Assembly (NCBI GenBank): GCA_028714075.1
Contig: JAQTMZ010000005.1
Coordinates: forward strand, 124,001-188,000
DNA length: 64,000 nucleotides
Origin: Gallionella sp.
Lineage (GTDB): Bacteria; Pseudomonadota; Gammaproteobacteria; Burkholderiales; Gallionellaceae
Direction of reading: 5' to 3'
Part shown: piece by piece, positions 12,595-57,423 of the stretch
Position numbering within the stretch: the stretch's first letter is position 1
Layout of the letters: each line of letters starts with the position of its first letter
Made by a program: the position numbers and the translations under genes
Notes under the pieces: generated by a model
What the model saw: only the letters and a program-made list of their open reading frames with translations
What the model was told of the DNA's origin: nothing
The model's database searches: none

Positions 12595-12608
12595 AAGGGA
12601 TGAGGCTG

Positions 12609-13880
12609 TTAGCGCAACGCCTGCTTGAACTCGTCGGGAAAGTGGTGGAAGGCGCTGTCGAGCAGCAGCACGGCACCGTTGATGAGATGGCAGCGGCCGC
12701 TACCGGGCAGCATGGTGCAGAGGTTTTTCAGCGTGGCGAGATCGGCCGCAGTGCCGCATCCGGTGTCGATCCGGTCCAGCAGGCGGCTCATGTTCGCGGT
12801 GCCCACCTTGCACGAGTTGCATTGGCCGCACGAGGAATGGGCGAAGAAACGCTCGTATTCGGCCACCCGCTTGACGATGCCGGTGCCTTCCGAAATGACG
12901 ATCATCGCGCCGGTGCCCAGATTGGCGCCGCGCGCGCGCAGGGATTCGAAATCCATGGCCACGTCGAGATCGACAGGCGTCAGCAGCGTGCTGGAAGGCC
13001 CGCCGGTAAACACCGCCTTGAGCGGTTTGCCGGACAGCAGGCCGCCGCCGTGGACGAAGATGAGTTCCCGCAGCGGTGTACCCATCGGCAGCTCAAACAC
13101 GCCGGGGTGCAGCACATCACCGCTCAGGGAATACAGCTTGGTGCCGGTGCCCGCACCCTTGCCCAAGGCGCGAAACCAGGCGGCTCCATGTGCCACAATA
13201 TTGGGTACGTTGGCGATAGTTTCAACATTATTGATCAGAGTCGGGCAGCCATGCACACCCGCTTGCGCCGGGTAGGGCGGTTTGCCGCGCGGAAAGGGGA
13301 AGCGTCCCTCGACCCATTCCATGGATGCGGTTTCTTCGCCGCCGATGTAGTGTCCCGAACCGGGCAGGAGCTGGAGTTCCAGCGGCCTGCCGAGTGCGGT
13401 CGACGCCTGCGCCAGCAGATCCGAGGCCTGCCATTGTTCGATTGCCGCCTTCATTGCCGCCAGTGAGCGGGTCAAATCGGGATTGGTGTAGAACACGACG
13501 CGGTTGACACCGATCGCCAGCGCCGCTACTACTGCGCCTTCGATCACCTGATGCGGCGTTTCCTCGAGCAACAGGCGATCCTTGAAGGTGCCGGGCTCGT
13601 CTTCGTTGCCGTTCACGATCAGGTATTTATCCGGTTTCGCTGTTTCGGCGGCGACAAACTCCCACTTGCGCCATGCCGGGAAACCGCTGCCACCCAAGCC
13701 GCGCAAGTCGGCCTGACGTACCTCCTCCAGTACGGCTGCCGGGTTTTGCACGGCGCGTTCCAGCGCCACGCCGCCGCCGGAACTGCGCCAGCGCGCCATG
13801 TCGGCGCCGACGCGCCGATCCGGATGGAGCAGCACTTGGGGTGAGTCAAGCTGGGGCTTTTGAATGATCAGCGGTTCCAT
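12609..13880 (-). CDS. NuoF-like NADH-binding flavoprotein, putative NADH module of fumarate reductase
   Basis: This 423-aa protein is a NuoF/HoxF-like subunit. The glycine-rich GLGGSGFPAWRKW segment (about residues 59-71) binds FMN/NADH. GNEDEPGTFKDR (about 90-101) matches the NuoF substrate site. The C-terminal cluster ligands are in SSCGQCNSCKVGT plus a later Cys in GSGRCHL, giving one [4Fe-4S] centre. NuoE- and NuoG-type partners are absent. It overlaps the FrdA-like gene by 13 bp and ends a run frdB-frdA-nuoF, so I infer that it feeds electrons from NADH to fumarate reduction, as in the soluble NADH-dependent fumarate reductase known from Hydrogenobacter. It could instead work with another electron acceptor. 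No membrane segments are seen. Confidence 0.8.
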   Translation of the reverse strand: MEPLIIQKPQLDSPQVLLHPDRRVGADMARWRSSGGGVALERAVQNPAAVLEEVRQADLRGLGGSGFPAWRKWEFVAAETAKPDKYLIVNGNEDEPGTFKDRLLLEETPHQVIEGAVVAALAIGVNRVVFYTNPDLTRSLAAMKAAIEQWQASDLLAQASTALGRPLELQLLPGSGHYIGGEETASMEWVEGRFPFPRGKPPYPAQAGVHGCPTLINNVETIANVPNIVAHGAAWFRALGKGAGTGTKLYSLSGDVLHPGVFELPMGTPLRELIFVHGGGLLSGKPLKAVFTGGPSSTLLTPVDLDVAMDFESLRARGANLGTGAMIVISEGTGIVKRVAEYERFFAHSSCGQCNSCKVGTANMSRLLDRIDTGCGTAADLATLKNLCTMLPGSGRCHLINGAVLLLDSAFHHFPDEFKQALR

Positions 13881-15463
13881 ACGCCTCCCGCTGCATAATC
13901 CGGCAATATCTTCGGCGCCCGCTGCTTCATGGGCAGGCCGGCGAGGGTCAGGGCGCGGCGCAGATGGTTCACATGTTCGAGGGTAACTTTCTTGGGGCCG
14001 CGGTCATGAGTGGCGGTGGCCGCGATACCGGCCCGGCGTCCGAAGCTGATGATTTCGAGCAGGGCGTTGCCCATCAGGCGGTTGCGCCCGTGAATGCCTC
14101 CCGACACTTCACCCACCGCATACAGGCCGGGCACCGTGGTGGCGCCGTTGACGTCGATGACCGCACCGCCGTTCTGGTAGTGCAGCGTCGGGTGTACCAG
14201 CAGGGGTTCGATGCGCGGATCGATGCCTGCAACATGGGTGCGGGTCATCAGGCTGGTAAATTGCTGTTCCAGCAGGCCCGGTTGGGCGCGTTCCAGACGC
14301 GGGGTGTCGAGCCACACACCGGTGTGCTGGTCGTTAACGCGGACACCACGTCCTTCCTTGCATTCGCGCAGGATAGCGGCGCATACCACGTCGCGCGGCT
14401 GGAGTTCATCAATGAAACGCTGGCCGAGGCCATTCAGCAGCAGGGCGCCCGCCGCACGTACGCCCTCGGTCACCAGCTTGCCCGCCAGGTGGGACGGGTG
14501 CAGCATGCCCGTGGGGTGATACTGGAAGGAATCCAGTTCGCATAGGCGCGCGCCGATGCGGTACGCCAGCACCAGGCCATCGCCCGTTGCGCCGAGGTGA
14601 TTGGAGGTTGGAAAACCGTTCAGGTGCAGCCGCCCCAGTCCGCCGGTCGCAAGTATTACGGAGCGGGTGCGCACGATGCGCAACCTGCCATCCTGCAGTG
14701 AAGTGAGCACCGCACCGACGCATTTCTGGCCGAGTTCGTTGGACAGCAGTTCGACGGCGGGGCTTTGCTCCCACACTTCGATGCTGCGGTGCTGGATGAC
14801 GGCTTCGCGCAGCACGCGCATCATTTCCAGACCGGTATAGTCGCGGCAATGGACGAGGCGCGCGGTGCTCATGCCGCCCGCGCGCCGTGTATGCAGATCG
14901 CCGCTGGGCGTCTGGTCAAGCTGCATGCCCTGATTGATCAGCCAATGCAGCACCTCCGGGCCATCTCCGGCCAAGGCGGATACCAGTGTCGGGTCACCGA
15001 TATGGTGGCCTCCGCGCAGGGTGTCCTGGATATGTTGCTGAACCGAGTCGTTCGGCTCGATGGCGGCCTGGATGCCGCCCTCGGCCATGACCGTGTTGCT
15101 GTCACCGAGGCGCAGTTTGGTGGCCAGCAGCACGCGCGCGCCGCTTTCGGCTGCCGCCAGTGCGGCCGCGCAGCCCGCACCGCCGCCGCCGATCACCAGC
15201 ACGTCGATGTCGGTCACCGGGGTGCCGGCCAGATCGGCCTCGTCAATGAATGCTTCGGCTTGCAGGAGTTCGGCCAACTCACGCTGGCAACTGTCGCCCG
15301 CGTTGGCGCCTACTGCCAGCTTGACCACGCTGTCGCGCAAGTGATCCGGGTGGTAGGTGTTGAGCAGCGTGTCGATATCGGTCATGTCGGGCAGCGGACC
15401 GGGATCCGCATCGACACGATAGCGAGCCAGTGCTTCGGCCAGAGGAATACCCTTCTTGCTCAT
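13868..15463 (-). CDS. FrdA/SdhA-like fumarate reductase flavoprotein
   Basis: This 531-aa FAD protein has the Rossmann motif VIGGGGAGCAAAL (about residues 91-103). Active-site signatures of the succinate dehydrogenase/fumarate reductase family follow: FQYHPTGM, TEGVRAAGALLLN, RDVVCAAI, HYQNGGAVID and a HGRNRLMGNALLE segment. The FAD-attachment region has a His (RLVHCRDYTG region differs from the classic HTxGG), so covalent flavin is uncertain. About 90 extra residues precede the Rossmann fold. It sits between the iron-sulfur subunit and the NuoF-like gene, and no membrane anchor gene follows, so a soluble complex is likely. In this operon fumarate reduction is the expected direction; aspartate oxidase-like relatives are the main alternative. 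Confidence 0.8.
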   Translation of the reverse strand: MSKKGIPLAEALARYRVDADPGPLPDMTDIDTLLNTYHPDHLRDSVVKLAVGANAGDSCQRELAELLQAEAFIDEADLAGTPVTDIDVLVIGGGGAGCAAALAAAESGARVLLATKLRLGDSNTVMAEGGIQAAIEPNDSVQQHIQDTLRGGHHIGDPTLVSALAGDGPEVLHWLINQGMQLDQTPSGDLHTRRAGGMSTARLVHCRDYTGLEMMRVLREAVIQHRSIEVWEQSPAVELLSNELGQKCVGAVLTSLQDGRLRIVRTRSVILATGGLGRLHLNGFPTSNHLGATGDGLVLAYRIGARLCELDSFQYHPTGMLHPSHLAGKLVTEGVRAAGALLLNGLGQRFIDELQPRDVVCAAILRECKEGRGVRVNDQHTGVWLDTPRLERAQPGLLEQQFTSLMTRTHVAGIDPRIEPLLVHPTLHYQNGGAVIDVNGATTVPGLYAVGEVSGGIHGRNRLMGNALLEIISFGRRAGIAATATHDRGPKKVTLEHVNHLRRALTLAGLPMKQRAPKILPDYAAGGVWNR

Positions 15464-15469
15464 CCTGCG

Positions 15470-16141
15470 TTAACCCGCATTATTTTTCCTTCTGTCTGCA
15501 GGGGGGCATTCCATGCGCTCTTTGCGCAATTCCTCCAGGCGGTGGATCAGGTTGGGCGGACGCAGATGAAAATGCGCCGTTACGCGCCGGGAGAACAGGC
15601 CCACATGGGCAGGTGCAATCAGTTCGGGGCAGGCGGCGTCGCACAGTTCGCACATGACGCATTCGAAGAATGCCTCTCCCGCCTCGCGGAAGCGGCCTGC
15701 GGCAGCCAGTGCAACGCCGTTCTCGACGGTGATACCCTTGGGGCAGGCGTTGTCGCAACCGTGGCAATGGCGGCAGCGCGATGCCTCGGGAAAAATATCC
15801 TGAAAGCGCGCATGGATGTCCCAGCCGTCCTTGAAATCGCTGATCTCGTAATGATGCAGTGGCGCCGATGCCGGCGGCAGGAACACGACCTCGATGCCGC
15901 TTTCGACGAAGGTCTGGCAGGCGAGGCCTACCGTTACTTCCTTGCCACGGCGCAGCATGATACGGCACGAGCCGCACACCCCTTCAAGGCAGCCGACACT
16001 CGTCACCTTGGGTACGCCGCCGTGCCAGGCTGCCTCGACCAGAGACATGCCCGGATGCGCATTGACGGCAAGTCCGTTGATGGTCAGGGCAACGTCTGGC
16101 GGTTGCCCGCTTTCGGTTGCCGTGGCATTGCTTGTCGTCAT
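15470..16141 (-). CDS. FrdB/SdhB-like iron-sulfur subunit
   Basis: This 223-aa protein has an N-terminal [2Fe-2S] ferredoxin domain (C51, C56, C59, C75) followed by two cysteine groups, CRHCHGCDNACP (C123-C133) and CVMCELCDAACP (C161-C171). The ligand spacing allows two [4Fe-4S] clusters, as in TfrB/HdrC-like fumarate reductase subunits, rather than the 2Fe-4Fe-3Fe set of respiratory SdhB. It would wire electrons from the NuoF-like subunit to the flavin subunit. Its start overlaps the korB stop by four bases, tying fumarate reduction to 2-oxoglutarate synthase expression. It is followed after 6 bp by the flavoprotein gene. Confidence 0.82.
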   Translation of the reverse strand: MTTSNATATESGQPPDVALTINGLAVNAHPGMSLVEAAWHGGVPKVTSVGCLEGVCGSCRIMLRRGKEVTVGLACQTFVESGIEVVFLPPASAPLHHYEISDFKDGWDIHARFQDIFPEASRCRHCHGCDNACPKGITVENGVALAAAGRFREAGEAFFECVMCELCDAACPELIAPAHVGLFSRRVTAHFHLRPPNLIHRLEELRKERMECPPADRRKNNAG

Positions 16142-17037
16142 GGACGTGAGAGGTTGATGATTTTTCTCAGGTCATAGTCCTTGCTCCCGCCGACGCGCGT
16201 GACCAACTCGGCCATGCGCTCGTGGAGGGCGGGGCGCTCAGACTTGTACAGCAACCCGGTAGGGATGCGGCCTTCCTGTTTTGCCTTGTAGACCACTTGC
16301 ATCGCGGCATTCCGGTCGCTTATGTCGTGGGCAGGGTCGACCTGGTCGCAGGCGTTCCTGAAGGATACTGCGGTATCCAGCTCATTGAAAGACGGGCATT
16401 GGGAGAGCAGGTTGATGAATGAGAACCCATTGTGTTCCATACCTTCCTTGATGAGCTGCGCCCCCAGCTTGGCATTGCCGGCAAAGGCCTGGCCGACATA
16501 AGTGGCGCCATAGGTGAGCATGTACAGGATCGGATCCAGCGGCTCTTCCATGCCGCCATACGGGGTAACTGCGGCTTTCATTTCCTCGCGCGAGGTGGGC
16601 GAGCATTGCCCCTTGGTCAAACCGTAGACGTGGTTGTCCATCAGGATGTAGGTGATGTTGATGTTCTTGCGCGCCAAATGCGGCATATGCCCGCCGCCAA
16701 TGGAGAAGCCGTCACCGTCACCGCCGCTGACCACCACGGCGAGGTCGGGGCGCGCCAGATGGACGCCTGTCGCCACCGGGCCGGCACGGCCATGCAGGGT
16801 GTGCATCTTGTAGGAGTTGACGAAGTAGGGCAGGCGCGAGGAACAGCCGATTCCCGAAACGCTCACCAGATGGTTCGGGTCGACGCCGAGTTCGGAGAGC
16901 GCGCGCAGCAGCCCCGTCAGTACGCCGTAGTGACCGCAGCCGGCGCACCAGAATGCCGGCGTTTTTTCATCCTTGTATTCCTTGGGTTTGAAGTCAACCT
17001 TGTTGAAGTATTTGCTCGGTTGAAGGGGCGCGTTCAT
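16138..17037 (-). CDS. korB: 2-oxoglutarate:ferredoxin oxidoreductase, beta subunit
   Basis: Thiamine-diphosphate subunit of a two-subunit 2-oxoacid:ferredoxin oxidoreductase. I choose the start at 17037 (MNAPLQ) because it overlaps the korA stop by four bases; the frame is open 20 residues further. The 299-aa product has [4Fe-4S] ligands C31, C34, C65 and C214. The TPP/Mg site is GGDGDGFSIGGGH (about 105-117) with a downstream DNH, and YGLTKGQCSPTS is a family signature. It pairs with the gamma-alpha fusion upstream. In the reductive direction the enzyme carboxylates succinyl-CoA to 2-oxoglutarate using reduced ferredoxin. Substrate choice is inferred from the operon; KorB-type sequence alone cannot exclude other 2-oxoacids. 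Confidence 0.9.
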   Translation of the reverse strand: MNAPLQPSKYFNKVDFKPKEYKDEKTPAFWCAGCGHYGVLTGLLRALSELGVDPNHLVSVSGIGCSSRLPYFVNSYKMHTLHGRAGPVATGVHLARPDLAVVVSGGDGDGFSIGGGHMPHLARKNINITYILMDNHVYGLTKGQCSPTSREEMKAAVTPYGGMEEPLDPILYMLTYGATYVGQAFAGNAKLGAQLIKEGMEHNGFSFINLLSQCPSFNELDTAVSFRNACDQVDPAHDISDRNAAMQVVYKAKQEGRIPTGLLYKSERPALHERMAELVTRVGGSKDYDLRKIINLSRP

Positions 17038-18764
17038 GCCAATATCTCCTTGACTTTGTTTACTATCATCTCGGGCGTGAAGGGCATCCCGCCACAAATG
17101 GTGTAGGACTCCGGGCGCAACGAGGTTTCCGCGCGCACGAAATGAGCCAACTGGCCCAGGAAGTTAACTTCGGGCAACAACAGCCGCTTGCAAGATGCGC
17201 CAAAGTCTTCGAATTGTTGTGCCGGCAATGGGTTCAGCAGCTTGGGATAGAAGCCCTTGACGTTGTAGCCTTCGGCACGCAGGCGTTGCAGTGCTTCGCG
17301 CACCACGCCGATGGTGCTGCCCCAGGCGATGATGCCCATATCCGCCATGCCTGCGCCTTGCGCGGCATCCACTTCAGTCGGGGCGACATCGTTGACCACC
17401 CCCTTGAGTTTGCGGAAACGCTTGCCCTGCATGGCTTCATGGTTGGCCGACGCGTAGCTGGGCAGGCCGCTCTCGCTGTGTTCAAGGCCGGTGGCGATGT
17501 GCATCCCGCCGGGTGTACCCGGATCGACCATCGGTGAAATGCCGTCTTCAGTCAGTTTGTAGCGCTGGTATTCGCCTTCGCCGTTCCAGCGTGTGCGCTC
17601 CACCAGTTTATAGCTGTCCGGGTTCGGGTAGGGCACACTCTGGGTCGAGAACGCCAAGGAGCCGTCGGAAAGCAGCAGCACGGGGCATTGATATTTCTCA
17701 GCCAGGTTGAACGCCACCACGGTCAGGTCGATGCAATCCTGGACGTTTTCTACCGACAGCACGATGCGCCCGGCATCGCCATGGCCGCCGTGTATCGCCA
17801 TGAACAGGTCGGACTGTTCATGCTTGGTCGGCAAGCCGGTGGAGGGGCCGCCGCGCTGGACGTCAACGATCACGCAAGGCAGTTCGGCCATGAACGCCAT
17901 GCCCAGCATTTCGCCCATCAGCGCCAGTCCGGGGCCTGAAGTGGAGGTCATCGCCTTCTTGCCAGCATAGGAAGCGCCGAGAACCTGGGAGATGGAGGCG
18001 ATCTCGTCCTCCGCCTGGATCAGGGTGCCGCCGCGTTTGGGCAGGTGCTTGGCGACATAGATCGCGACTTCGGTTGCCGGGGTGATCGGGTAGGCGGAAA
18101 AGAAATCCAATTTAGCAATTATCGCACCGAGACCGATGGCATTATTGCCGGACATCACGATGACATCCTGTTTGGACTTGGGTACCCCGATTGCCCATGG
18201 ATCGGTCTTTTTCAGTGCGGCCGCCAGTTCGCGACCGCGCTCCAATGCGGCCAGGTTGCCCTTGACCACATCCTCGCCCTTGCGCGCAAACTTGGTGGTG
18301 AGCACTTCGCGCAGGGACTCGATGGGGATGTTGAATAGTACCGACAGCGCACCCATCGCCACCATGTTCTTGGCGCGCGAGTTGTTCATCTCCTTGGCTG
18401 TCTGGGTCATCGGGATGGGGTAAGCGTGTACGCCGGGCGGAATGTCCGGCGTGAAGTCGCTCGGGCTATCGTAAACGATGGCCGTGCCCGGCTTGAGAAA
18501 GGCGCGGTTATTGTTGTAGGCTTCGCCGTTGAAGGCGCACAGGACATCGAAAATGTCGCCCTGGTTGTGCAGCTTCTCGGTGCTGGCGCGCACTTGATAC
18601 ATCGCGTAGCCACCCTTGATTTCGGCGGGGAAAGTCTTGAAAGTGTAGACGTCGAGACCGGCGCGTGCGCAGGCTAGAGTAATGAAATCACCTACCGAGA
18701 TAACACCTTCGCCACCTTCGCCACCGATTCGAATGATCAGATCGTTCTTGGTTATACCTTGCAT
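17034..18764 (-). CDS. korA: 2-oxoglutarate:ferredoxin oxidoreductase, fused gamma-alpha subunit
   Basis: This 576-aa protein begins with the gamma domain (about 1-190, RIGGEGGEGVISVGD), followed by the alpha domain (about 200-576) that carries the YPITPATE signature and the STSGPGLALMGE segment. The fused gamma-alpha layout is the standard two-subunit KorA form. SD AAAGGAC precedes the ATG. A possible extended -10 promoter lies about 80 nt upstream (18846-18854), so korA-korB-frdB-frdA-nuoF may be a sub-operon as well as the tail of a longer transcript. In the carbon-fixation context it catalyses succinyl-CoA + CO2 + 2 reduced ferredoxin to 2-oxoglutarate. Such enzymes are oxygen-sensitive as a family. 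Confidence 0.9.
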   Translation of the reverse strand: MQGITKNDLIIRIGGEGGEGVISVGDFITLACARAGLDVYTFKTFPAEIKGGYAMYQVRASTEKLHNQGDIFDVLCAFNGEAYNNNRAFLKPGTAIVYDSPSDFTPDIPPGVHAYPIPMTQTAKEMNNSRAKNMVAMGALSVLFNIPIESLREVLTTKFARKGEDVVKGNLAALERGRELAAALKKTDPWAIGVPKSKQDVIVMSGNNAIGLGAIIAKLDFFSAYPITPATEVAIYVAKHLPKRGGTLIQAEDEIASISQVLGASYAGKKAMTSTSGPGLALMGEMLGMAFMAELPCVIVDVQRGGPSTGLPTKHEQSDLFMAIHGGHGDAGRIVLSVENVQDCIDLTVVAFNLAEKYQCPVLLLSDGSLAFSTQSVPYPNPDSYKLVERTRWNGEGEYQRYKLTEDGISPMVDPGTPGGMHIATGLEHSESGLPSYASANHEAMQGKRFRKLKGVVNDVAPTEVDAAQGAGMADMGIIAWGSTIGVVREALQRLRAEGYNVKGFYPKLLNPLPAQQFEDFGASCKRLLLPEVNFLGQLAHFVRAETSLRPESYTICGGMPFTPEMIVNKVKEILA

Positions 18765-19095
18765 CTACTTGTCCTTTTTTAACACAGTATCTTAGGGGAA
18801 CCCATCGTCCGCAGAATGATTCCTGACAGTCACAGGAGTGAAATAATTATACCAAATAAAGTTGCTGGAGCCGTGTAAATTTTGTGGGGCAGGGGAGAGC
18901 CAAGCCGCTATTTTGGAGGGTTAATGTCCATTTGAAACAGCGTTATTTTCATGCTTCCGCACCAAGGGTGAGCGTGTCAATTTGACTCACAGACTGCCGA
19001 GCAGCAAATTGCCTGCAACCCTCGGGTGCGAAAATCCATTGATAACATCTTGCCATCATTGCGCTTGAAAATGCTTCCACTCATCCGCCTGCTTT
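18765..19095 (-). promoter_or_regulatory. korA-icd intergenic region with possible extended -10 promoter (18846-18854)
   Basis: A 331-bp gap without a gene. On the minus strand it holds TGGTATAAT (18846-18854), an extended -10 match, with no clear -35. The start of transcription would fall near 18839 and give a leader of about 75 nt before korA. No strong terminator is visible after icd. The rest of the gap shows nothing I can name. Confidence 0.4.
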
Positions 19096-21327
<2,232 letters not shown>

Positions 21328-21355
21328 TCATCCTCTTCCAATTAAGTGATCTCAG

Positions 21356-21409
21356 GAGCGCCGACGTCCTCGTCGGCATCTACAGTCAATGCCGACGAGG
21401 GGCACTCCC
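21356..21409. repeat. Palindromic intergenic repeat between icd and acn
   Basis: A perfect 11-bp stem (21368-21378 with 21390-21400, CCTCGTCGGCA and its complement) with an 11-nt loop. The arms extend imperfectly to GGAG(C/T)GCC on the left and its complement on the right. It has REP-like symmetry and lies 15 bp downstream of acn; it could attenuate transcription between acn and icd. Confidence 0.6.
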
Positions 21410-21423
21410 AATCAATCCGTGGT

Positions 21424-23373
21424 TTAAGCAGCCTTCATCTGGCTGGCGAACAACGAAAGCGCTCCGCCTGCGCGGATCATCGGAATATCTTCCTTCCCTT
21501 GCGCAAGCTTGAGAGGCATATCGCCGACACCCTCGACCACCAGTTTGAGCTGGCCGCTTTCCAGGCCGGAAGTGTCGAGAGACACTTTGGCGCCCTGCTG
21601 GATGCGCTCCAGATCGGCCGGGTTTTCGAAGGTCAGTCCGAGAATGCCGAAATTGGCGAGGTTGGCCAGATGGATGCGTTCGAAGCCCTTGGCTATGATG
21701 GCGCGAATCCCCAGGATGCGCGGGCACAGCCCGGCGTGTTCGCGCGAGCTGCCCATGCCGTAGCCGTCACCGGCGACGATGAAGCCGTGACCGCCCGCAT
21801 CGCGCACTGCTGCCGCGCGTGCGCTGAAGGTCTTGTCCACCTGGACAAAGGTCGCCTGCTTCGCGTATTCGTCCGCATTGGAACGCAGCGACAGATACTT
21901 GCCGGCCGGCTGGATATGGTCGGTCGTGATCTCGTTGCCGAGCTTGAGCATGACTTCGCCCGCCAGCTTCGCGGGCAATGGATCCAGCGTCGGCAGCGGC
22001 GCGATATCGGGGCCGTAGCGCATCACCACCTTGGCGGCTTCCGCTGGCGGCAGCGGCTTGACATAGGCGTCCATATCCACGACCGGCGGAACCAGCTTGA
22101 TGACGAGATCCGGATTGTCAGCGAGCAAATCGCGCGGGTCGGTCAGCACACCCGTCACGGCGCTGGCGGCGGCAGTTACCGGGCTGACCAGATGCACGGC
22201 GGCGGTTTCGGTGCCGGAACGGCCTTCGAAGTTGCGGTTGGCGGTGGACAGCATCACGCCATTGCTGGGTGGCGAAAAGCCCTGGCCGATGCACGCGCTG
22301 CAGGCGTTTTCCATCACGCGCACACCGGCGGCGTAGAAGATTTCCAGATAGCCTGCCGCCGCCAGTTGGCGGGCAATAGCTTGTGAGCCGGGAGCGATCG
22401 CGGTATCGACCTTGACTTTCTTGCCGCGCAGCAGCTCGCCGACGCGTGCCAGGTTTTCGTAATTGGAGTTGGTGCAGCTGCCGATGAACACCGCGTCGAT
22501 CGGCATCCCGGCATGTTTGGACACCGGCTCCATGCCCTTCAGACGCGGATACAGCGCGATGGTCGGTTGCAGGTCGGACAGGTTGATCTCGACGGTGCGC
22601 GAATAAGATGCGCCCGCATCGGCGGCCAGCGGCTTGAAGTCGCCCGCACGCTTGCGGCCTTCGAGATAGGCCTTGGTGATGTCATCCGACGGGAAGATCG
22701 AGAAGGCGACGCCGGCCTCGGTGCCCATGTTGCAGATGGTGGCGCGGTCGGTGACATTCAGGCTCTTCAGGCCGGGGCCGGTGTATTCCAGGCAGATGTC
22801 CTTGTTGCCCTTGATGCCGATGACCTTGAGCACGTTCAGGATCACGTCCTTGGCCAGCACGCCCGGATGCAGCGCGCCGGTGAGGTTCACCTGCACTACG
22901 TTCGGCATCGAAATCTTGTAGGAAGTGCCCGCCATCGCGAAGCTCACGTCCGTGCCGCCCGCGCCCAGCGCCAGCATGCCCATGCCGCCGGCGTTGGTGG
23001 TGTGCGAGTCGGAACCGATCACCGATTTGCCGGGAGCCGCGAAGTCCTCGAGGAACACGCTGTGGCAGATGCCGAGGCCGCCGCGCGAGAACCAGCAGCC
23101 GTATTTCTTGCTGAAAGTCTCAAGGTAGCGATGGTCGTCGCCGTCGATGTAGCCGACTTGCAGGGTCTTGTGATCCACCACGATGACCGAGGTGGTCTTC
23201 ACGCGATCCACGCCCATCTTCTCGAACGCCAGCGCGGCGGCGGTGCCTGTGGCGTCCTGGTACAGGGTGTGGGTGAACTGGATTTCCAGCGGTTGTCCCG
23301 GTTCGGGGAGCTGCTTCAATCCCCCGGCCGCATTGGCCAGCAGGATTTTCTGTGCGACGTTGAATGCTGTCAT
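21424..23373 (-). CDS. Aconitate hydratase, short Aquifex-type
   Basis: A 649-aa aconitase with the three cluster cysteines C300 (FIGSCTNSN), C358 and C361 (NACSACIGQG), the GSDSHTTNAGG signature (120-130) and a C-terminal swivel domain with GYGMGSSREHAGL. It is shorter than AcnA (~890) and AcnB (~860) and resembles the compact aconitases of Aquificales and related autotrophs. It interconverts citrate and isocitrate. SD GAGGATCTC precedes the ATG. It lies 99 bp upstream of icd and 184 bp after the ATP-citrate lyase large gene, giving the citrate-isocitrate-2-oxoglutarate order. The [4Fe-4S] cluster is expected to be oxygen-labile. Confidence 0.9.
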   Translation of the reverse strand: MTAFNVAQKILLANAAGGLKQLPEPGQPLEIQFTHTLYQDATGTAAALAFEKMGVDRVKTTSVIVVDHKTLQVGYIDGDDHRYLETFSKKYGCWFSRGGLGICHSVFLEDFAAPGKSVIGSDSHTTNAGGMGMLALGAGGTDVSFAMAGTSYKISMPNVVQVNLTGALHPGVLAKDVILNVLKVIGIKGNKDICLEYTGPGLKSLNVTDRATICNMGTEAGVAFSIFPSDDITKAYLEGRKRAGDFKPLAADAGASYSRTVEINLSDLQPTIALYPRLKGMEPVSKHAGMPIDAVFIGSCTNSNYENLARVGELLRGKKVKVDTAIAPGSQAIARQLAAAGYLEIFYAAGVRVMENACSACIGQGFSPPSNGVMLSTANRNFEGRSGTETAAVHLVSPVTAAASAVTGVLTDPRDLLADNPDLVIKLVPPVVDMDAYVKPLPPAEAAKVVMRYGPDIAPLPTLDPLPAKLAGEVMLKLGNEITTDHIQPAGKYLSLRSNADEYAKQATFVQVDKTFSARAAAVRDAGGHGFIVAGDGYGMGSSREHAGLCPRILGIRAIIAKGFERIHLANLANFGILGLTFENPADLERIQQGAKVSLDTSGLESGQLKLVVEGVGDMPLKLAQGKEDIPMIRAGGALSLFASQMKAA

Positions 23374-23412
23374 GAGATCCTCGTTAAATTATTTAATAAA
23401 AATGCGAGTTAA

Positions 23413-23464
23413 GGGGCAAGCTCAAATTGATTTACAAATTACATCAACAATCCGAGCCTGCCCC
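23413..23464. repeat. Inverted repeat between aclA-like and acn
   Basis: Arms 23413-23423 (GGGGCAAGCTC) and 23454-23464 pair over 11 bp with one mismatch across a 30-nt AT-rich loop. It lies in the 184-bp gap after the citrate lyase gene. It could be a processing or partial termination site; there is no T-tract. Confidence 0.35.
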
Positions 23465-23557
23465 ATTTGCTATTAGCTATTCCATGAATCAACTCTATTA
23501 CCGTTCGTGCCTTTGGCTTAGCGGATCAGGTTTTCATGGGTTTCGCAAAAAATCCTG

Positions 23558-26260
23558 TCAAGAAACGTGGCTGCACTGCGAAGCCGGAGTGCGGGTATCC
23601 ATGTTGCGTCCGCGATTGATGTGGTCGTCGATCTCGCCCGCGCATCCGGCCATGCGGCCGAACAGGAAGGCGGTGAACGCCGCCATTTCCATCAGGTTTT
23701 CGCTGAACTGGCCATTGCGGTAGCGCGGCCACAACAGCTTCAGCAGTGCGGCGGCGATCACGGCGTCGATGTTCACGCAGAACACGTTGCTGGTCACGCC
23801 GTTGTCGTACAGCGACTGCACCAGCGTCTTGTAGAAGTCGTGGAACACGTTCTTCTCGCCGCGTTCGGCAAAGAACTCGGAGATGTAAGTCTCGCGCGGA
23901 TCCTTGTTGACCGGCAGGCCCTTAAATACCGGGTGGTTCACGCCGGGGATGTTGCGCACGCCGGTGCCCAGCGCCTTGCTTTGCTTCTTCTCCTTGTTGA
24001 AGGCGATGGCGAAGTCGGTGGTGATTTTCTTCAGGTCGATGTCTTTGCCGGCATTGCCCGCATCGGCCAGCGAAGTGTCCTTGAAATTCTCGATCAGGAA
24101 CTGGATACCTTCGTAGCCGTTGCCGCCGTGGGCGAAGCCGGTGTGGGTCAGGAAGCCGATCATGCCCTTGTTGATCTGCACGCGCTCCGGCGATTCCGGG
24201 CCGTCGGCCGATACCGCGCCCTTGCAGCCTTGCGACGAGATGGTGCCGACACCGTTGGAGATGATCAGCCCCAGAATGACTTGCAGCGGCAGCAGGCTGG
24301 CCGCTGTGGGACGCTCGCCCAACAGCGCGATGTAGGCCAGTTGCGTGACGGTCCAGGAATCGAGGATTTCCTGGTTGTCCACGCCGCAGAAGCTGCCGGC
24401 TGCGTGGTGTTTGGCTTCGGTGGAAGCGCCGATGATCATGCCGAACAGCTTGGTGTACCAAGGCAGGTTGCGCACGGTCAGCTTGGAGATGCGCTTGCGC
24501 ATCAGCGGCTCCCATGCCACGGTGGTGGTCAGTGCGGCCAGCACGGCATCTGCCTTGGGATGGCCTTTGAGCGAGCGCAGATACTTCACGAACACGGATT
24601 TCGCACCGCGCTTGTCGAAGGCCTTGAGCATGGCTTCGGCCTTGGCGTCGGCCTTGTCACTGACCAGAGTCGCGAGTTGCTCGGCGGTGGCTGCGGCCGG
24701 ATTGACCTTGGCTGCTTCATCGTCGCCCTTCAACAGGCCGGAGTGCGCGAAGATTTCCGTCAGGGAGTCGGCGGCAGCGCGCGCGGCATCCGCACGCTTA
24801 GGCCCGAGCAAGGCGACGGCTGCGCTGATCGCGGTGTTGGGCGCATTGCCCGCTTCGCGCGCGGCTTCGGCAGCGGCCAGCATGGGATCATTGTGCAGGT
24901 TGACGTGCGCGGCCACCGCGAGGTTGTACAGCGCGTTGTCGTTCGCGTCGTTGAGCTCGCGCACCAGCGCCAGGCACAGGTTGGATTCCAGCGGCTGCTT
25001 GGAACAGTCGAGGATCGAGATGTTGTTGACCTTGGTGACTTGCGTCTTCGGATCCATCACCGAGCTGCCCGAGCAATCCTTCATCGACTGGCGCGGGAAA
25101 ATCGCGCCGACGTTCTTCAGCAGTTCGGCGATCTGCAAATCGTACGGCGCCATGGCCTTGACCACCGGGATGTCGAGCGCAGCGGGCAGCTTCAGGCCCT
25201 GATTGTCGCCGAACCACGGCTTTAGTTCCAAGTTGCCTTCCGGCGGAAAGTCTTTCTCTACGCCGTTCAGTTTCATCACCGCAGTCAGCGCCTGCGGAAT
25301 GTGGGCGATGTTGGTGACCACCGCACCTTTTTTCGAGCATACCGGATTTTCAGGCGTAAACAGGTCGCTTACGCCGAACTTGTCCATGAACCATTTTTCC
25401 TTGGCGCGTGCGTCATCGCCTGATCCGGCGATGGCGCCGGCGTGGCCCACGGCGCGTGTCAGAGTGGCTTTCCAGCGGCCCACCACGCAGGCGACCACCG
25501 GCTTGTCAAACACAACGTCGTGTTCGTAGTAACCGCCCGGCTCGGAGTACATTACCGCCGCCTTGGTGCGTGCGTCGTTGGACATGGCGTAGGCGAATTC
25601 AGGCGCCGCGTAATTGATGTAGATATCCTTGCCGCTGGAGATCAGCGTCGTGGTGCCCCAGCCGCCGATGGACAGGTAGTTGGCGATGGTGGTGGTGAAG
25701 TTGCCGGAGTTGGAGAAGATGGCGATCGAGCCTTTGCGCAGGGTCTCGCCAGGGTTGTCGCCGCCCAGCGCCCCACCGATGCGTACCTGATTCCAGGAGT
25801 CGGCTACGCCCAGGCAGTTGCCGCCGAAAATGTCCACGCCGCGCTGCTGGCCGAGCGCGCGGATTTCGCGCGAATCATGCACCGAAATTTTTTCGGTGAT
25901 GATGACGACTTTTTCGACATCGGGATTGATGCGAATCAGTTCGGCGACGCCGTCGCGCACGGCGGAAGGCGGCAGGTAGACCACGCCGACGTTGAACTTG
26001 TGACCGGCTTCCATGCCTTCGCGCACGTTGTTGTACACGGGAATGTTGCCTGCGGGTGTCTCGACGACTTGCCCACGGCGACCGGGGGAAGTACCGAACA
26101 CGATGTTGCCACCGGAATAGGCGTGGCTGACCGGAGTCACGGTACGGGATTCGTTGCCGGTGATGTTCAGCACGCAGATGCGATCCTCGCGGGTCGCGAT
26201 ATCGGCCAGCGAGCGGATGCCGACGTAGTATTTAAAGTCTTGGATACCAGGCTTTCTCAT
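23558..26260 (-). CDS. aclA: ATP-citrate lyase large subunit (CoA-ligase plus citrate-synthase-like domains), unusually long
   Basis: This 900-aa protein joins two enzymes. The N-terminal ~320 residues are a succinyl-CoA synthetase alpha-like CoA ligase with the phosphohistidine H273 in VGHAGAIAG. The C-terminal ~270 residues are citrate-synthase-like with three candidate catalytic residues: H711 (FAHGGNG), H776 (GVNHPVF) and D832 (NIDAV). Between them lies a ~300-residue Ala-rich, mostly helical region. Classical bacterial AclA is about 600 aa, so this subunit is much larger and may belong to the divergent ATP-citrate lyase group reported from Magnetococcus- or Leptospirillum-like autotrophs (from memory, not checked). 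With AclB it would cleave citrate to acetyl-CoA and oxaloacetate using ATP. SD AAAGGGA supports the start. Alternative: separate citryl-CoA synthetase and lyase activities in one chain. Confidence 0.82.
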   Translation of the reverse strand: MRKPGIQDFKYYVGIRSLADIATREDRICVLNITGNESRTVTPVSHAYSGGNIVFGTSPGRRGQVVETPAGNIPVYNNVREGMEAGHKFNVGVVYLPPSAVRDGVAELIRINPDVEKVVIITEKISVHDSREIRALGQQRGVDIFGGNCLGVADSWNQVRIGGALGGDNPGETLRKGSIAIFSNSGNFTTTIANYLSIGGWGTTTLISSGKDIYINYAAPEFAYAMSNDARTKAAVMYSEPGGYYEHDVVFDKPVVACVVGRWKATLTRAVGHAGAIAGSGDDARAKEKWFMDKFGVSDLFTPENPVCSKKGAVVTNIAHIPQALTAVMKLNGVEKDFPPEGNLELKPWFGDNQGLKLPAALDIPVVKAMAPYDLQIAELLKNVGAIFPRQSMKDCSGSSVMDPKTQVTKVNNISILDCSKQPLESNLCLALVRELNDANDNALYNLAVAAHVNLHNDPMLAAAEAAREAGNAPNTAISAAVALLGPKRADAARAAADSLTEIFAHSGLLKGDDEAAKVNPAAATAEQLATLVSDKADAKAEAMLKAFDKRGAKSVFVKYLRSLKGHPKADAVLAALTTTVAWEPLMRKRISKLTVRNLPWYTKLFGMIIGASTEAKHHAAGSFCGVDNQEILDSWTVTQLAYIALLGERPTAASLLPLQVILGLIISNGVGTISSQGCKGAVSADGPESPERVQINKGMIGFLTHTGFAHGGNGYEGIQFLIENFKDTSLADAGNAGKDIDLKKITTDFAIAFNKEKKQSKALGTGVRNIPGVNHPVFKGLPVNKDPRETYISEFFAERGEKNVFHDFYKTLVQSLYDNGVTSNVFCVNIDAVIAAALLKLLWPRYRNGQFSENLMEMAAFTAFLFGRMAGCAGEIDDHINRGRNMDTRTPASQCSHVS

Positions 26261-26290
26261 TGCTTTCCCTTTGCTAATTTTTCAATTTCG

Positions 26291-26370
26291 TAGGGTGGGC
26301 ACGTTTTTGTGCCCACGCGGTAAACATTGATTGCGGAGTAACGCGCGGACACAAAAACGTGCCCACCCTA
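26291..26370. repeat. Inverted repeat (GTGGGCAC family) between aclB and aclA
   Basis: Two 29-bp arms (26291-26319 and 26342-26370) pair with two mismatches around a 22-nt loop. Each arm also holds its own small hairpin (GTGGGCAC...GTGCCCAC). This fills most of the 113-bp aclB-aclA gap. A related element is at 53759-53810. Confidence 0.7.
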
Positions 26371-26373
26371 ACA

Positions 26374-27654
26374 TCACGCGTCGGCTGGCAAACCCAGCAG
26401 CTTCGCCACTTCGGCGCGGCCGCCGCTCTTCATCCAGCGATCCGCTTCCTGCGCGTAGTTCACCACATCGGTCATCGCGGAATCGAAGCCGAATATCTTG
26501 TAAGGAATGCGCAACGAGTCGAGCACATCCTTGAACGCGCCCATGCCGCGTATCACCTGCGGGCCGCCGCGACCGATCACCACATACAGCGGGGTGGCGC
26601 CGCGCTCGCTGAAATAATCGCGTAGCGCATCCGCCATCGCGCGGAACGTGACGAAGATGTCGGTGTTGTTGGCCTTGCCGCCGATGATGAACAGCACATT
26701 GGTCTGCTTGAGGTAATATTTAAGAGAAATGCGCATCACGTCGTACATCTTCTCGTAGGGCGGATTGCCGCCGAAGTCGGAGGAGATGATGGCGTCGTTG
26801 CCCAGCACTTCGGTGACCAGCGAGTTTGCGCCGCCGCCGAAGGTAGGCGCGAGGATGGTGCCCTTCTCGTTGATCACGTAAACGTCGCTCTGCCCCTGGT
26901 AGGTGCGCAGTTCGTTGATCTCCTGCTCGAAGTCATTGGCTTCGGTGACGAACAGGTCGTCGGGCAGGGTCAGGCGGTTCACACGCGGATCGTCACGGTC
27001 GAAACCGCATTTGAAGTCACAGGCCACCGGAACCAGCGAGCCGGACTTGCTCGGCATCATACGGATCGGGTTAAGTTCCAGCGTGGACATGCCGTAGTGG
27101 TGATACAGATCCCACAGCTTGGGCAGATGCTGCACCAGCGGGGAGATGATTTCCTTGGGAGCGCCGAGGTCGGTCAGCGCATTGGACACGATGAAGGACT
27201 TGAGGCCGGTCAGCGGGTCGAACGGCACTTCGATGATCTGGGTCTTGTCCAGTTCTTCGATGTCCATGCCGCCGTGATGCGTCAGCGTCATGACCGGCGC
27301 ACGGTAGCGGGTAGAGTCGGTGATCGAGAAGTAAATTTCATGCTGGGCCGGTACCGCACCCTCGAAGGTGACGCCGCGCGATTTGTAGACAACATTGCCG
27401 ACCTTGTATTCGGCAAAATACAGGCGCTCTTTCTCGGCCAGTGCCGATTTTAGATCGGTAGCACGCCCGATAAGGCCGGACTTGCCCTTCTTGCCGATGC
27501 CGCCCCTGAAGATGGGTTTGACGAAGACCGAGCCGCAACGCTCGATCATGCTGTGAATCTCGTGTTCGCTGGCTTCCGGCCCGAGCACTTCGGAGGCCGG
27601 AAAATCGACGATCTTGAGCAGCCCTGCTCCATGGAGCATTCCACTGATATTCAT
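26374..27654 (-). CDS. aclB: ATP-citrate lyase beta (ATP-grasp) subunit
   Basis: This 426-aa protein is a succinyl-CoA synthetase beta-like ATP-grasp subunit. VFVKPIFRGGIGKKGKSG (about residues 44-61) is the nucleotide loop. LELNPIRM and the DFKCGFD segment resemble the metal-binding strand of the family, and a flavodoxin-like CoA-ligase C-terminal domain carries FGGGANSL and VIGRGGPQV. It matches AclB-type lengths (~400). It is first in the carbon-fixation operon, with a promoter ~300 nt upstream and SD AAGAGG. With the following large subunit it forms the citrate-cleaving enzyme, the marker of the reductive TCA cycle. Ordinary succinyl-CoA synthetase is less likely because the partner gene carries the citrate-synthase domain. 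Confidence 0.85.
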   Translation of the reverse strand: MNISGMLHGAGLLKIVDFPASEVLGPEASEHEIHSMIERCGSVFVKPIFRGGIGKKGKSGLIGRATDLKSALAEKERLYFAEYKVGNVVYKSRGVTFEGAVPAQHEIYFSITDSTRYRAPVMTLTHHGGMDIEELDKTQIIEVPFDPLTGLKSFIVSNALTDLGAPKEIISPLVQHLPKLWDLYHHYGMSTLELNPIRMMPSKSGSLVPVACDFKCGFDRDDPRVNRLTLPDDLFVTEANDFEQEINELRTYQGQSDVYVINEKGTILAPTFGGGANSLVTEVLGNDAIISSDFGGNPPYEKMYDVMRISLKYYLKQTNVLFIIGGKANNTDIFVTFRAMADALRDYFSERGATPLYVVIGRGGPQVIRGMGAFKDVLDSLRIPYKIFGFDSAMTDVVNYAQEADRWMKSGGRAEVAKLLGLPADA

Positions 27655-30071: not shown

Positions 30072-30089
30072 GCTTTATATTCCTTGTGG

Positions 30090-43725: not shown

Positions 43726-44400
43726 TTATGGGGCGCAGTGTGCGGCAATGGCCGGAACAGCCTTATTGGACCGTTCGTCTATCATGCGTTTGACCACCAG
43801 CATCAGGCCGGTGACCAGGAATGCGCCGGGCGGCAGGATCATCATCAATATGCCGGTGTCTTCCGGCAGCACGCGCATTTCCAGAAACTTGAAGGCGGGG
43901 CCGAGCAGCAGCGATGCGTCGGAGAACAGGGTGCCGGAGCCGCTGATTTCGCGCACCGCGCCGATGGCAGTGAGCGCAAGGGTGAAGCCGACGCCCATGA
44001 AGAAACCGTCGGCTAACGATGGCAATGCCGATTGTTTCGAGGCGAACATTTCGATGCGGGCAAACGGTAGACAATTAACGACGATCAGGGGAATGAACAG
44101 GCCCAGCACCTTGTACAGTTCGTGCATCCACGCGTTCATGCACATGTCCACTATCGTGACCGTGGTCGCGATGATCAGCACGAAGACGGGGATGCGCACT
44201 TCCTGGGAGAAGTGGTTGCGGAAGATGGACACCAGCATGGCAGAGGCGGTCATTACCGCCGCGGTCGCCAGCCCCATGCCCAGGCCGTTGGTGGCGCTGT
44301 TGGTCATGGCCATGGCCGGGCATAGACCCAGCATCATGCTGAGCACGCCGTTGTTCGTCCATAATCCCTCGCGGGCAATAGTGCGGTAATCAGTCGTCAT
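43726..44400 (-). CDS. rnfE: Rnf complex membrane subunit E
   Basis: A 224-aa membrane protein of the RnfA/RnfE (NqrD/NqrE) family with about six hydrophobic segments. NNGVLSMMLGLCPAMAMTN and the LGLFIPLIVVNC stretch are family signatures, and each holds a conserved Cys thought to ligate an intramembrane iron-sulfur centre with RnfA. It is part of the ion-pumping ferredoxin:NAD+ oxidoreductase, encoded between rnfG and rnfH. Confidence 0.93.
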   Translation of the reverse strand: MTTDYRTIAREGLWTNNGVLSMMLGLCPAMAMTNSATNGLGMGLATAAVMTASAMLVSIFRNHFSQEVRIPVFVLIIATTVTIVDMCMNAWMHELYKVLGLFIPLIVVNCLPFARIEMFASKQSALPSLADGFFMGVGFTLALTAIGAVREISGSGTLFSDASLLLGPAFKFLEMRVLPEDTGILMMILPPGAFLVTGLMLVVKRMIDERSNKAVPAIAAHCAP

Positions 44401-44411
44401 TTGGTGTCTCC

Positions 44412-47628: not shown

Positions 47629-47725
47629 CTTTTTATATTCTTTCAATCAAACTGATGCCAACACTGTTGATTTTTCATCGTCCCCATGGTCTCCGGGAGC
47701 GATGAATGAAGTCCGCCCTGCAATG

Positions 47726-48298: not shown

Positions 48299-48300
48299 AC

Positions 48301-53841: not shown

Positions 53842-57423
<3,582 letters not shown>

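What the first reader, a model, noticed from the sequence alone, without database searches (positions are those of the whole stretch)
12609..27654. Near-complete reductive TCA cycle in one same-strand block
Seen: aclB, large aclA-like, aconitase, monomeric IDH, korA, korB, FrdB-, FrdA- and NuoF-like genes in a row on one strand, with several 4-bp overlaps. The order follows the pathway from citrate cleavage to fumarate reduction. Known: the reductive TCA cycle is marked by ATP-citrate lyase and ferredoxin-dependent 2-oxoglutarate synthase, and is rare in betaproteobacteria. Inference: the block is a transferable carbon-fixation operon.
Basis: partly seen in the sequence, partly recalled or inferred. 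Interest (0 to 1): 0.85.

Follow-up and report, generated by a model that had tools for sequence, protein, structure and literature searches.

The report
Second carbon-fixation pathway in iron-oxidizing bacteria
A freshwater iron-oxidizing bacterium of the Gallionella family, a group described as fixing CO2 by the Calvin cycle, also carries what looks like a complete second pathway, the reverse Krebs cycle, and so do close relatives kept in laboratory cultures, so the idea can be tested.

Summary
The block is real and its coordinates are right: aclB-aclA-acn-idh-korA-korB-frdB-frdA-nuoF, one strand, window 27654-12609. [quoted passage not shown] its likely catalytic residues are invariant in 35 of 35 aligned proteins. 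KorAB is closest to PDB 6n2n (recalled as the Magnetococcus OGOR). FrdBA-NuoF looks like a soluble NADH:fumarate reductase (inferred). The host is Gallionellaceae. AclA occurs in 33 of 158 family genomes; 32 of 33 have an OGOR against 5 of 125 others. Assemblies of three named Ferrigenium species carry all modules. AclA and OGDH trees conflict, which fits horizontal movement, but acl, kor-frd-nuoF and pfor-rnf are separable modules, not one transferred operon. The Gallionellaceae papers I looked into name only RuBisCO. The genome also encodes an oxidative TCA cycle, so the direction is unproven. New variant of a known kind (dual CBB + rTCA), in a lineage where I found no report of it.

The parts
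26374..27654 (-). aclB, ATP citrate lyase subunit (ATP-grasp + citrate-binding), 426 aa
   Evidence: Pfam Citrate_bind 61 bits, ATP-grasp_2 49 bits; best PDB citryl-CoA synthetase large subunit 6hxq_B 123 bits, then 6hxi 79 bits
23558..26260 (-). aclA, 900 aa; SucD/citryl-CoA-synthetase-like N-part, citryl-CoA-lyase/citrate-synthase-like C-part
   Evidence: H273, H711, H776, D832 invariant in 35 of 35; tree
21424..23373 (-). acn, aconitase, 649 aa
   Evidence: NF005558 687 bits
19096..21324 (-). idh, monomeric NADP isocitrate dehydrogenase, 742 aa
   Evidence: TIGR00178 1342 bits
17034..18764 (-). korA, 2-oxoacid (2-oxoglutarate):ferredoxin oxidoreductase, fused gamma-alpha subunit, 576 aa
   Evidence: TIGR03710 627 bits; PDB 6n2n_A 886 bits over 570 residues; tree
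16138..17037 (-). korB, beta subunit, 299 aa; starts in a 4-bp ATGA overlap with korA
   Evidence: TIGR02177 278 bits; PDB 6n2n_B 406 bits; overlap
15470..16141 (-). frdB-like iron-sulfur subunit, a 2Fe-2S and two CxxCxxCxxxCP motifs, 223 aa
   Evidence: weak: best PDB SdhB 28 bits; motifs read from the translation
13868..15463 (-). frdA-like flavoprotein, 531 aa, inferred soluble fumarate reductase
   Evidence: TfrA model 348 bits and nadB 316 bits, both below cut-off; active-site motifs aligned with SdhA and NadB
12609..13880 (-). nuoF-like NADH/FMN/4Fe-4S subunit, 423 aa
   Evidence: TIGR01959 399 bits, below cut-off 558.65; PDB hits
43726..48882 (-). rnfABCDGE: rnfE 43726-44400, rnfG 44412-45062, rnfD 45059-46135, rnfC 46132-47646, rnfB 47726-48298, rnfA 48301-48882
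   Evidence: seen in five of six relatives mapped
49405..50418 (-). apbE-like, FAD:protein FMN transferase, upstream of the rnf genes
   Evidence: NF007774 76 bits, below cut-off; seen in four of six relatives mapped
50925..53720 (-). ppdk, pyruvate phosphate dikinase, 931 aa
   Evidence: TIGR01828 1309 bits; six of six
53842..57423 (-). pfor, NifJ-type pyruvate:ferredoxin oxidoreductase, 1193 aa
   Evidence: TIGR02176 1761 bits; six of six
57471..58403 (-). prk, phosphoribulokinase (Calvin cycle), 47 bp upstream of pfor
   Evidence: NF011997 479 bits; gap; beside pfor in two of six relatives mapped
58915..60333 (+). pycA, biotin carboxylase subunit
   Evidence: Pfam Biotin_carb_N/C, CPSase_L_D2; six of six
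60376..62211 (+). pycB, pyruvate carboxylase subunit B (oadA-like)
   Evidence: NF006761 900 bits; six of six
62481..63485 (+). HpcH/HpaI (CitE-like) lyase beside pycB
   Evidence: PF03328 38 bits; six of six

Best explanation
The window carries most of a reductive TCA cycle and its electron supply in a Gallionellaceae bacterium that also has RuBisCO. AclBA splits citrate (ATP + CoA) to acetyl-CoA and oxaloacetate. MDH and fumarase (elsewhere in the genome) make fumarate. FrdBA-NuoF reduces it to succinate with NADH, without quinol. A SucCD-like pair makes succinyl-CoA. KorAB carboxylates it with reduced ferredoxin, IDH carboxylates again, and aconitase returns citrate. PFOR, PPDK and pyruvate carboxylase turn acetyl-CoA into pyruvate, PEP and oxaloacetate. 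Rnf makes reduced ferredoxin from NADH using membrane potential; NADH comes from Fe(II) by reverse electron flow. I expect it to run in the reductive direction at low O2 and to share carbon fixation with the Calvin cycle. Shown: gene content, families, conserved residues, co-occurrence, linkage, purifying selection. Inferred: reaction direction, NADH as donor of the fumarate reductase, Rnf as ferredoxin source, iron oxidation by this host, regulation.
For: Gene identities. Remaining steps in the genome: a Ligase_CoA pair on contig C8, taken as SucCD; fumarase; MDH and transhydrogenase beta on the same contig; RuBisCO. KorAB closest to 6n2n, which I recall as the Magnetococcus marinus OGOR. AclA residues invariant in 35 of 35, read against weak PDB alignments. 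AclA co-occurs with OGOR (32 of 33 against 5 of 125, Fisher p 5e-27), FrdA (31 of 33 against 5 of 125) and PFOR (25 of 33 against 13 of 125) (p-values ignore shared ancestry). kor-frd-nuoF and pfor-ppdk-pyc share a contig in six of six relatives mapped, chosen for holding them. frdB-frdA-nuoF stays together with no kor or acl in the 20 kb read of G109 (L163), which argues that NuoF serves FrdBA. dN/dS 0.03-0.24.
Against: The same contig carries sdhAB, gltA and odhAB, so an oxidative TCA cycle is also encoded. Eight of 33 AclA-positive genomes lack a PFOR hit, five of these (G080, G135, G139, G149, G155) at 95% completeness or more. G018 has kor-frd-nuoF without AclA or PFOR. Thirteen AclA-negative genomes have PFOR. 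No expression, enzyme or isotope data were seen. The AclA C-part match to citrate synthase and citryl-CoA lyase structures is weak (best E 0.06), and FrdA and NuoF score below their family cut-offs.
Confidence: 0.66

Rival explanations
1. The genes serve biosynthesis and mixotrophy, not an autotrophic cycle: KorAB makes 2-oxoglutarate or replaces OGDH at low O2, FrdBA-NuoF disposes of electrons or runs as a succinate:NAD reductase, and AclBA supplies acetyl-CoA from citrate. CO2 is fixed by the Calvin cycle alone.
For: RuBisCO in 141 of 158 family genomes, including 28 of 33 AclA-positive ones; oxidative TCA genes on the same contig; kor-frd-nuoF without acl in G018 and frd-nuoF alone in the stretch read of G109; the same KorA type sits beside sucCD, with no frdB hit in the roughly 600 bases read after korB, in four of four other Pseudomonadota loci looked at (of 29 fetched).
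Against: AclA together with OGOR, FrdA and PFOR in 25 of 33 genomes; linkage to PFOR, PPDK and pyruvate carboxylase; OGDH already present in the host; five AclA-positive genomes, two of them 97-99% complete, have no RuBisCO hit.
Confidence: 0.24
2. KorAB, FrdBA and NuoF form one complex in which NADH oxidation by fumarate pays for the reductive carboxylation of succinyl-CoA, that is, flavin-based electron bifurcation between two steps of one cycle.
For: Five genes with overlaps or gaps of 6 bp or less; korM and frdM co-occur in 25 of 26 genomes against 0 of 132; the best PDB hit of NuoF is a NiFe hydrogenase subunit B, and the list includes an electron-bifurcating HydB; the alternative Kor module of the family carries HdrA- and VhuD-like genes, known from bifurcating complexes (recalled).
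Against: NuoF is 423 aa, without the extra length of the 584-630 aa HydB-type hits; no NuoE-like subunit among the nine genes; frdB-frdA-nuoF occurs without kor in the stretch read of G109.
Confidence: 0.06
3. Mis-binned or decaying genes: the block is a contaminant contig or a silent remnant.
For: The host genome is a 27-contig assembly and many relatives are fragmented; one relative has aclA in two frames (L055).
Against: The same contig carries OGDH that groups with other family members; AclA in 33 of 158 family genomes, with records of many different isolates in the scan; dN/dS 0.03-0.24.
Confidence: 0.02

Closest known systems
CBB + rTCA gene clusters of tubeworm symbionts and Thioflavicoccus mobilis (Rubin-Blum et al. 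2019, PMC6315080; parts 1 and 2 of 3 read)
   Same: Type II aclAB with acn and idh, OGOR, a tfrAB-like putative fumarate reductase, Rnf and RuBisCO in one genome; that paper also infers horizontal acquisition.
   Different: The window has a two-subunit OGOR joined to frdBA-nuoF, PFOR-PPDK-PRK-pyc in the same window, and a Gallionellaceae host. Their korABCD with flx-hdr resembles the alternative module of other Gallionellaceae; none of that module's hdrA, mvhD, orf343, hydB and hydG genes matches the window. Their sequences were not compared directly.
2-oxoacid:ferredoxin oxidoreductase PDB 6n2n, 6n2o (Magnetococcus marinus OGOR: organism and name recalled; the record says only pyruvate flavodoxin/ferredoxin oxidoreductase)
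   Same: KorA matches over 570 residues at 886 bits, KorB over 289 residues at 406 bits.
   Different: Linked to frdBA-nuoF; Gallionellaceae KorA forms its own clade against 29 other Pseudomonadota sequences (bootstrap not settled).
Soluble NADH-dependent fumarate reductase of Hydrogenobacter thermophilus (recalled; the original paper was not seen)
   Same: Soluble Frd-type subunits with an NADH-linked reaction in an rTCA autotroph.
   Different: As recalled, five subunits there; here three genes with a NuoF-like protein. No sequence comparison was made.
Citryl-CoA synthetase and citryl-CoA lyase (PDB 6hxq, 6hxp; source Hydrogenobacter recalled)
   Same: Best PDB matches of AclB and of the AclA N-part; weak match of the C-part.
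   Different: Here the lyase-like part is fused to the synthetase-like part in one 900-aa AclA.

Membership tests
ACL-type reductive TCA cycle | ATP citrate lyase genes | tested here: met
   aclBA
ACL-type reductive TCA cycle | Ferredoxin-dependent 2-oxoglutarate synthase | tested here: met
   KorAB family models and 6n2n match; substrate by homology only
ACL-type reductive TCA cycle | Fumarate reductase | tested here: inconclusive
   FrdA family and active-site motifs fit, but scores lie below the TfrA and NadB cut-offs; activity unknown
ACL-type reductive TCA cycle | Pyruvate synthase and the remaining reversible enzymes in the same genome | tested here: met
   PFOR, PPDK, Pyc; MDH; fumarase; Ligase_CoA pair taken as SucCD
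ACL-type reductive TCA cycle | Net flux in the reductive direction during autotrophy | not testable with these tools
   needs labelling or enzyme assays
Type II ATP citrate lyase | Groups with type II sequences | tested here: inconclusive
   groups with Magnetococcales, Nitrospina and gammaproteobacterial AclA (42 rows); the type II label of those rows is recalled and from PMC6315080/PMC3522073 for gammaproteobacteria; no type I sequence was in the tree
Type II ATP citrate lyase | Phospho-His loop and citrate-synthase-like triad | tested here: met
   GHAGA H273 and H711, H776, D832 invariant in 35 of 35; H711 and H776 placed by weak PDB alignments, H273 and D832 by recalled motifs
Dual CBB + rTCA bacteria | RuBisCO and phosphoribulokinase in the same genome | tested here: met
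   (form II from the model and length, label recalled)
Rubin-Blum korABCD-flx-hdr rTCA cluster | Four-subunit OGOR with flx-hdr in the cluster | tested here: not met
   window has two-subunit korAB and no match to hdrA, mvhD, hydB or hydG of L059; own-genome POR_N hits are only korA and PFOR; the genome was not searched for hdrA
Electron-bifurcating NuoF-type (HydB) family | Extra iron-sulfur domains beyond the NuoF core plus a NuoE-like partner (recalled) | tested here: not met
   423-aa core only; no NuoE-like protein among the nine genes
Soluble five-subunit NADH:fumarate reductase of Hydrogenobacter | Subunit make-up and sequence | not tested
   no sequence of that enzyme was compared
Single transferable operon | Same nine genes contiguous in relatives | tested here: not met
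   contiguous in one of six relatives mapped

The most novel reading that the evidence does not exclude
Gallionellaceae hold a modular, horizontally moving reductive TCA island with two interchangeable ferredoxin-side modules (KorAB with FrdBA-NuoF, or KorABC with HdrA/VhuD/HydB/HydG-like proteins), and in the window's type KorAB-FrdBA-NuoF acts as one unit in which NADH-driven fumarate reduction helps to pay for reductive carboxylation. Some RuBisCO-free members would live by this cycle alone.
Probability: 0.06. Interest if true: 0.9.

Novelty: new variant of a known kind. Interest (0 to 1): 0.66.

Why it matters
Neutrophilic iron oxidizers live on very little energy and are described as Calvin-cycle autotrophs (Hoover et al. 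2023, passages of PMC10734462: RuBisCO in 94 of 103 genomes; the words TCA and citrate have no occurrence in its main text). A second, cheaper but oxygen-sensitive pathway would change energy budgets, growth-yield estimates and carbon-isotope readings of iron mats. Two near-complete AclA-positive genomes without a RuBisCO hit (G022, G056) might be rTCA-only relatives. Strain KS of F. straubiae is now isolated (PMC12622760, passages), and the F. straubiae KS03 assembly carries all modules, so the question why a cell keeps two CO2-fixation cycles becomes testable in a free-living pure culture, if the isolate genome agrees.

Tried and rejected
AclA or AclB as ordinary succinyl-CoA synthetase: rejected, since AclB carries the citrate-binding domain and both score far below the SucCD cut-offs; the genome's Ligase_CoA pair is on another contig. 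FrdA as L-aspartate oxidase: not excluded by score (316 bits against a 452.75 cut-off); disfavoured because it travels with FrdB and NuoF. A membrane quinol:fumarate reductase: disfavoured, since no anchor subunit is among the nine genes. A predicted structure of AclA: not possible. Promoter and terminator scan: 5 and 15 sites against 4.6 and 17.3 in shuffles, so no evidence; one promoter-like site (11 of 12) lies about 300 bp upstream of aclB and a terminator-like site about 230 bp beyond nuoF. Rfam and tRNA scans: nothing. RuBisCO absence linked to AclA: 5 of 33 against 12 of 125, p 0.35, not significant.

Literature: ten searches; searches returned nothing; some searches listed 25 of 81, 40 of 525 and 20 of 158 papers. 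Fourteen papers were opened, all for passages except PMC6315080 (parts 1 and 2 of 3). No passage seen reports rTCA genes in Gallionellaceae. Peura et al. 2018 (PMC6094481, passages) report a Ferrovales-related betaproteobacterial MAG with all genes of both pathways. PMC12507030 holds the words citrate lyase and Gallionellaceae apart. The library lacks most subscription papers, including Huang et al. 2022 on Ferrigenium, so a prior report cannot be excluded.

Rows and choices. The 26 KorA genomes of the window's type were counted at 78% identity or more, two of them (G009, G156) on partial matches; the 24 of the other type include fragments (G039, G023); five further genomes with 30-32% KorA matches (G062, G067, G069, G130, G150) were counted as neither. 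G109 and G110 (FrdA 61%) were left out of the frdM count. Set membership was copied by me. In one search, 20 of the 33 AclA-positive genomes were used, 42 rows (window plus 41 of the 58 loci), with two long branches (L026, L056), six genomes chosen because their contigs hold the modules, so 'six of six' is not a random sample. In one search four of the 29 non-family KorA loci were read.
Full report
Observation. They are AclB (426 aa), AclA (900 aa), aconitase, monomeric IDH, KorA (576 aa), KorB, an FrdB-like iron-sulfur protein, an FrdA-like flavoprotein and a NuoF-like protein. From aclB to korA the gaps are 113, 184, 99 and 331 bp; korA to nuoF overlap or nearly touch, with two ATGA overlaps. 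dN/dS against five or six relatives is 0.03-0.24 for each gene. G+C is 0.606 in the block, 0.573 in the second block and 0.534 in the rest of the window.

What the enzymes are. AclB carries the Pfam citrate-binding domain; its best solved relative is the large subunit of citryl-CoA synthetase (123 bits), then 6hxi 'citrate lyase, subunit 1' (79 bits; recalled as Chlorobium) and human ACLY (62-65 bits). The AclA N-part matches the small subunit of citryl-CoA synthetase. Its C-part is weakly like citryl-CoA lyase and citrate synthase (E 1e-5, best E 0.06). Those weak alignments pair H711 with the His of an AHGG motif and H776 with the His of the citrate synthase GHRVYK motif; D832 is assigned from a recalled motif. 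These three and the GHAGA His, H273, are invariant in 35 of 35 AclA proteins. A 42-row tree puts the 18 Gallionellaceae AclA in one group (100/100), next to Rhodocyclaceae-like sequences and then Nitrospina, Magnetococcales and gammaproteobacteria. The family label of the 18 rests on matching coordinates. No type I ACL was in that tree, and 'type II' is a label from PMC6315080, PMC3522073 and recall.

KorA and KorB match PDB 6n2n at 886 and 406 bits; that this is the Magnetococcus marinus OGOR is recalled. FrdA aligns with SdhA and NadB through the HPTG, TEG.R, PRD, HY..GG and NR..GN motifs; where SdhA has AHTVMAEGG it has SNTVMAEGG, so FAD is probably not covalent (recalled role of that His). 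FrdB has a 2Fe-2S motif and two CxxCxxCxxxCP motifs. NuoF keeps the core seen in complex I and in NAD-linked hydrogenases. I infer a soluble NADH:fumarate reductase. That frdB-frdA-nuoF also stands without kor or acl in the 20 kb read of G109 (L163) supports NuoF as the partner of FrdBA.

The second block. Searching the genome for POR_N found a second hit inside the window. It is a NifJ-type PFOR (53842-57423), flanked by PPDK and phosphoribulokinase, with a complete rnfABCDGE set and an apbE-like gene on the same strand, and pyruvate carboxylase A and B plus a CitE-like lyase on the other. The rest of the cycle is in the genome: MDH and transhydrogenase beta 21-24 kb beyond the window on the same contig, fumarase and a Ligase_CoA pair on contig C8 that I take as SucCD. 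RuBisCO is present (form II by model and length). sdhAB, gltA and odhAB are present too, so an oxidative cycle is encoded.

Who carries it. A scan of GTDB contigs with AclA gave 58 loci, many titled Gallionella, Sideroxydans or Candidatus Ferrigenium. In the window's family, AclA is found in 33 of 158 species genomes (22 of 94 high-quality ones), KorA of the window's type in 26, window-type FrdA in 25, PFOR in 38, RuBisCO in 141 and OGDH E1 in 143. AclA co-occurs with an OGOR in 32 of 33 genomes against 5 of 125 without AclA (p 5e-27), with FrdA in 31 of 33 against 5 of 125, with PFOR in 25 of 33 against 13 of 125. These p-values ignore shared ancestry. Of the 33, 11 have only the window's KorA type, 11 only the other type, 10 both, and 1 (G035, 79% complete) none. 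Five of 33 lack a RuBisCO hit, two of them 97-99% complete (G022, G056); the association is not significant (p 0.35).

Two interchangeable modules. In L059, and by gene order in many other Gallionellaceae loci, the genes upstream of aclB are korABC, an HdrA-like protein, a VhuD-like protein, an unnamed 343-aa protein and HydB/HydG-like proteins, close to what Rubin-Blum et al. describe for tubeworm symbionts. The window has no match to the five electron-transfer genes of that module and carries korAB-frdBA-nuoF instead. Mapping six relatives, chosen because their contigs hold the modules, showed pfor-ppdk-pyc and korAB-frdBA-nuoF in all six and aclBA in five; in the sixth, F. straubiae KS03, aclA lies about 230 kb away on the same contig. 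Rnf was seen in five of six, not in the stretch read of GD18. kor-frd-nuoF follows idh directly only in STC_117 and the window. prk lies beside pfor in the window, STC_117 and GD18. Assemblies of the three named Candidatus Ferrigenium species (straubiae KS03, bremense BP06, altingense AG11) have AclA, KorA, FrdA, PFOR, Rnf and RuBisCO. G018, whose contig length equals that of AP019536 in a table of PMC12622760 (probably F. kumadai An22, recalled), has korAB-frdBA-nuoF but no AclA or PFOR hit.

Movement. In 20 genomes, AclA identity between genera averages 87% while OGDH averages 73% (correlation of the two 0.32); five of six members of genus g14 form a clade among g1 sequences in the AclA tree, and all six stand apart in the OGDH tree; G071 is grouped with G015 and G079 by OGDH (support 1.0), yet its AclA is 85% identical to the window's against 97-98% for the other two. 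Slow evolution could explain high identity, not the conflict in topology. I read this as horizontal movement of the acl genes within the family; mis-binning in single assemblies is not excluded. KorA of 20 Gallionellaceae forms one clade against 29 other Pseudomonadota (100/100, but the bootstrap had not settled), and in four of those 29 loci read the same KorA type sits beside sucCD.

Mechanism and rivals. The most likely reading is a working reductive TCA cycle, used at low O2 beside the Calvin cycle, with ferredoxin reduced by Rnf. The main rival is a biosynthetic or mixotrophic role without autotrophic flux. A bolder one is coupling of fumarate reduction to OGOR by bifurcation; the short NuoF and the kor-free frd-nuoF cluster speak against it.

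Literature. Ten searches of the held library brought up no passage that reports rTCA genes in Gallionellaceae (three lists were capped). Passages of the 103-genome pangenome paper (PMC10734462) name RuBisCO only; passages of PMC10734482, PMC11784278 and PMC12607638 name RuBisCO, rbcL or carbon fixation, and those of PMC12622760 carbon fixation, with no hit for TCA. PMC9802188 has no Gallionell- hit; PMC9516098 assigns aclB to Nitrospira and says Betaproteobacteria lacked it in that sample; PMC6094481 reports a Ferrovales-related MAG with both pathways. Most subscription papers are not in the library, so 'unreported' holds only for what was searched.

Verdict.

Noticed in passing
window 57471-58403 and 53842-57423: Phosphoribulokinase (Calvin cycle) lies 47 bp upstream of PFOR (rTCA) on the same strand; prk also lies beside pfor in STC_117 and GD18. 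The two pathways may be co-regulated.
   Followed up: partly
G022 and G056 (genome search handles): AclA-positive family genomes, 99% and 97% complete, with no RuBisCO hit; possibly rTCA-only. G056 also lacks an OGDH E1 hit.
   Followed up: partly
L163 (G109) 10888-14353: frdB-frdA-nuoF cluster at 55-60% identity with no kor or acl in the 20 kb read, in another genus of the family.
   Followed up: partly
L162 (G018) 12143-18213: korAB-frdBA-nuoF in a single-contig genome without AclA or PFOR hits; length fits AP019536.
   Followed up: partly
window 72-11845 and 28279-31451: Both flanks of the block hold sensor kinases and response regulators with PAS, CHASE, GGDEF/EAL domains; one kinase (8774-11845) has a CxxCH motif that could bind heme.
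   Followed up: no
window 38315-41395: 1026-aa metallophosphatase + STAND NTPase protein in a stretch of low G+C (about 0.45), perhaps a defence gene.
   Followed up: no
window 42442-42927: YhaV-type toxin of a toxin-antitoxin pair.
   Followed up: no
window 32424-36972: Two Na+/H+ exchangers and a CNNM/CorC-like protein between the two carbon blocks; a possible link with an ion-pumping Rnf.
   Followed up: no
window 62481-63485: CitE-like HpcH/HpaI lyase beside pycB in six of six relatives mapped; substrate unknown.
   Followed up: partly
G079:C11:9157-11844: A second AclA at 62% identity in one genome with 5% contamination; may be a contaminant.
   Followed up: no
L055 9911-12656: aclA read as two frames in one assembly; sequencing error or a broken copy.
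   Followed up: no
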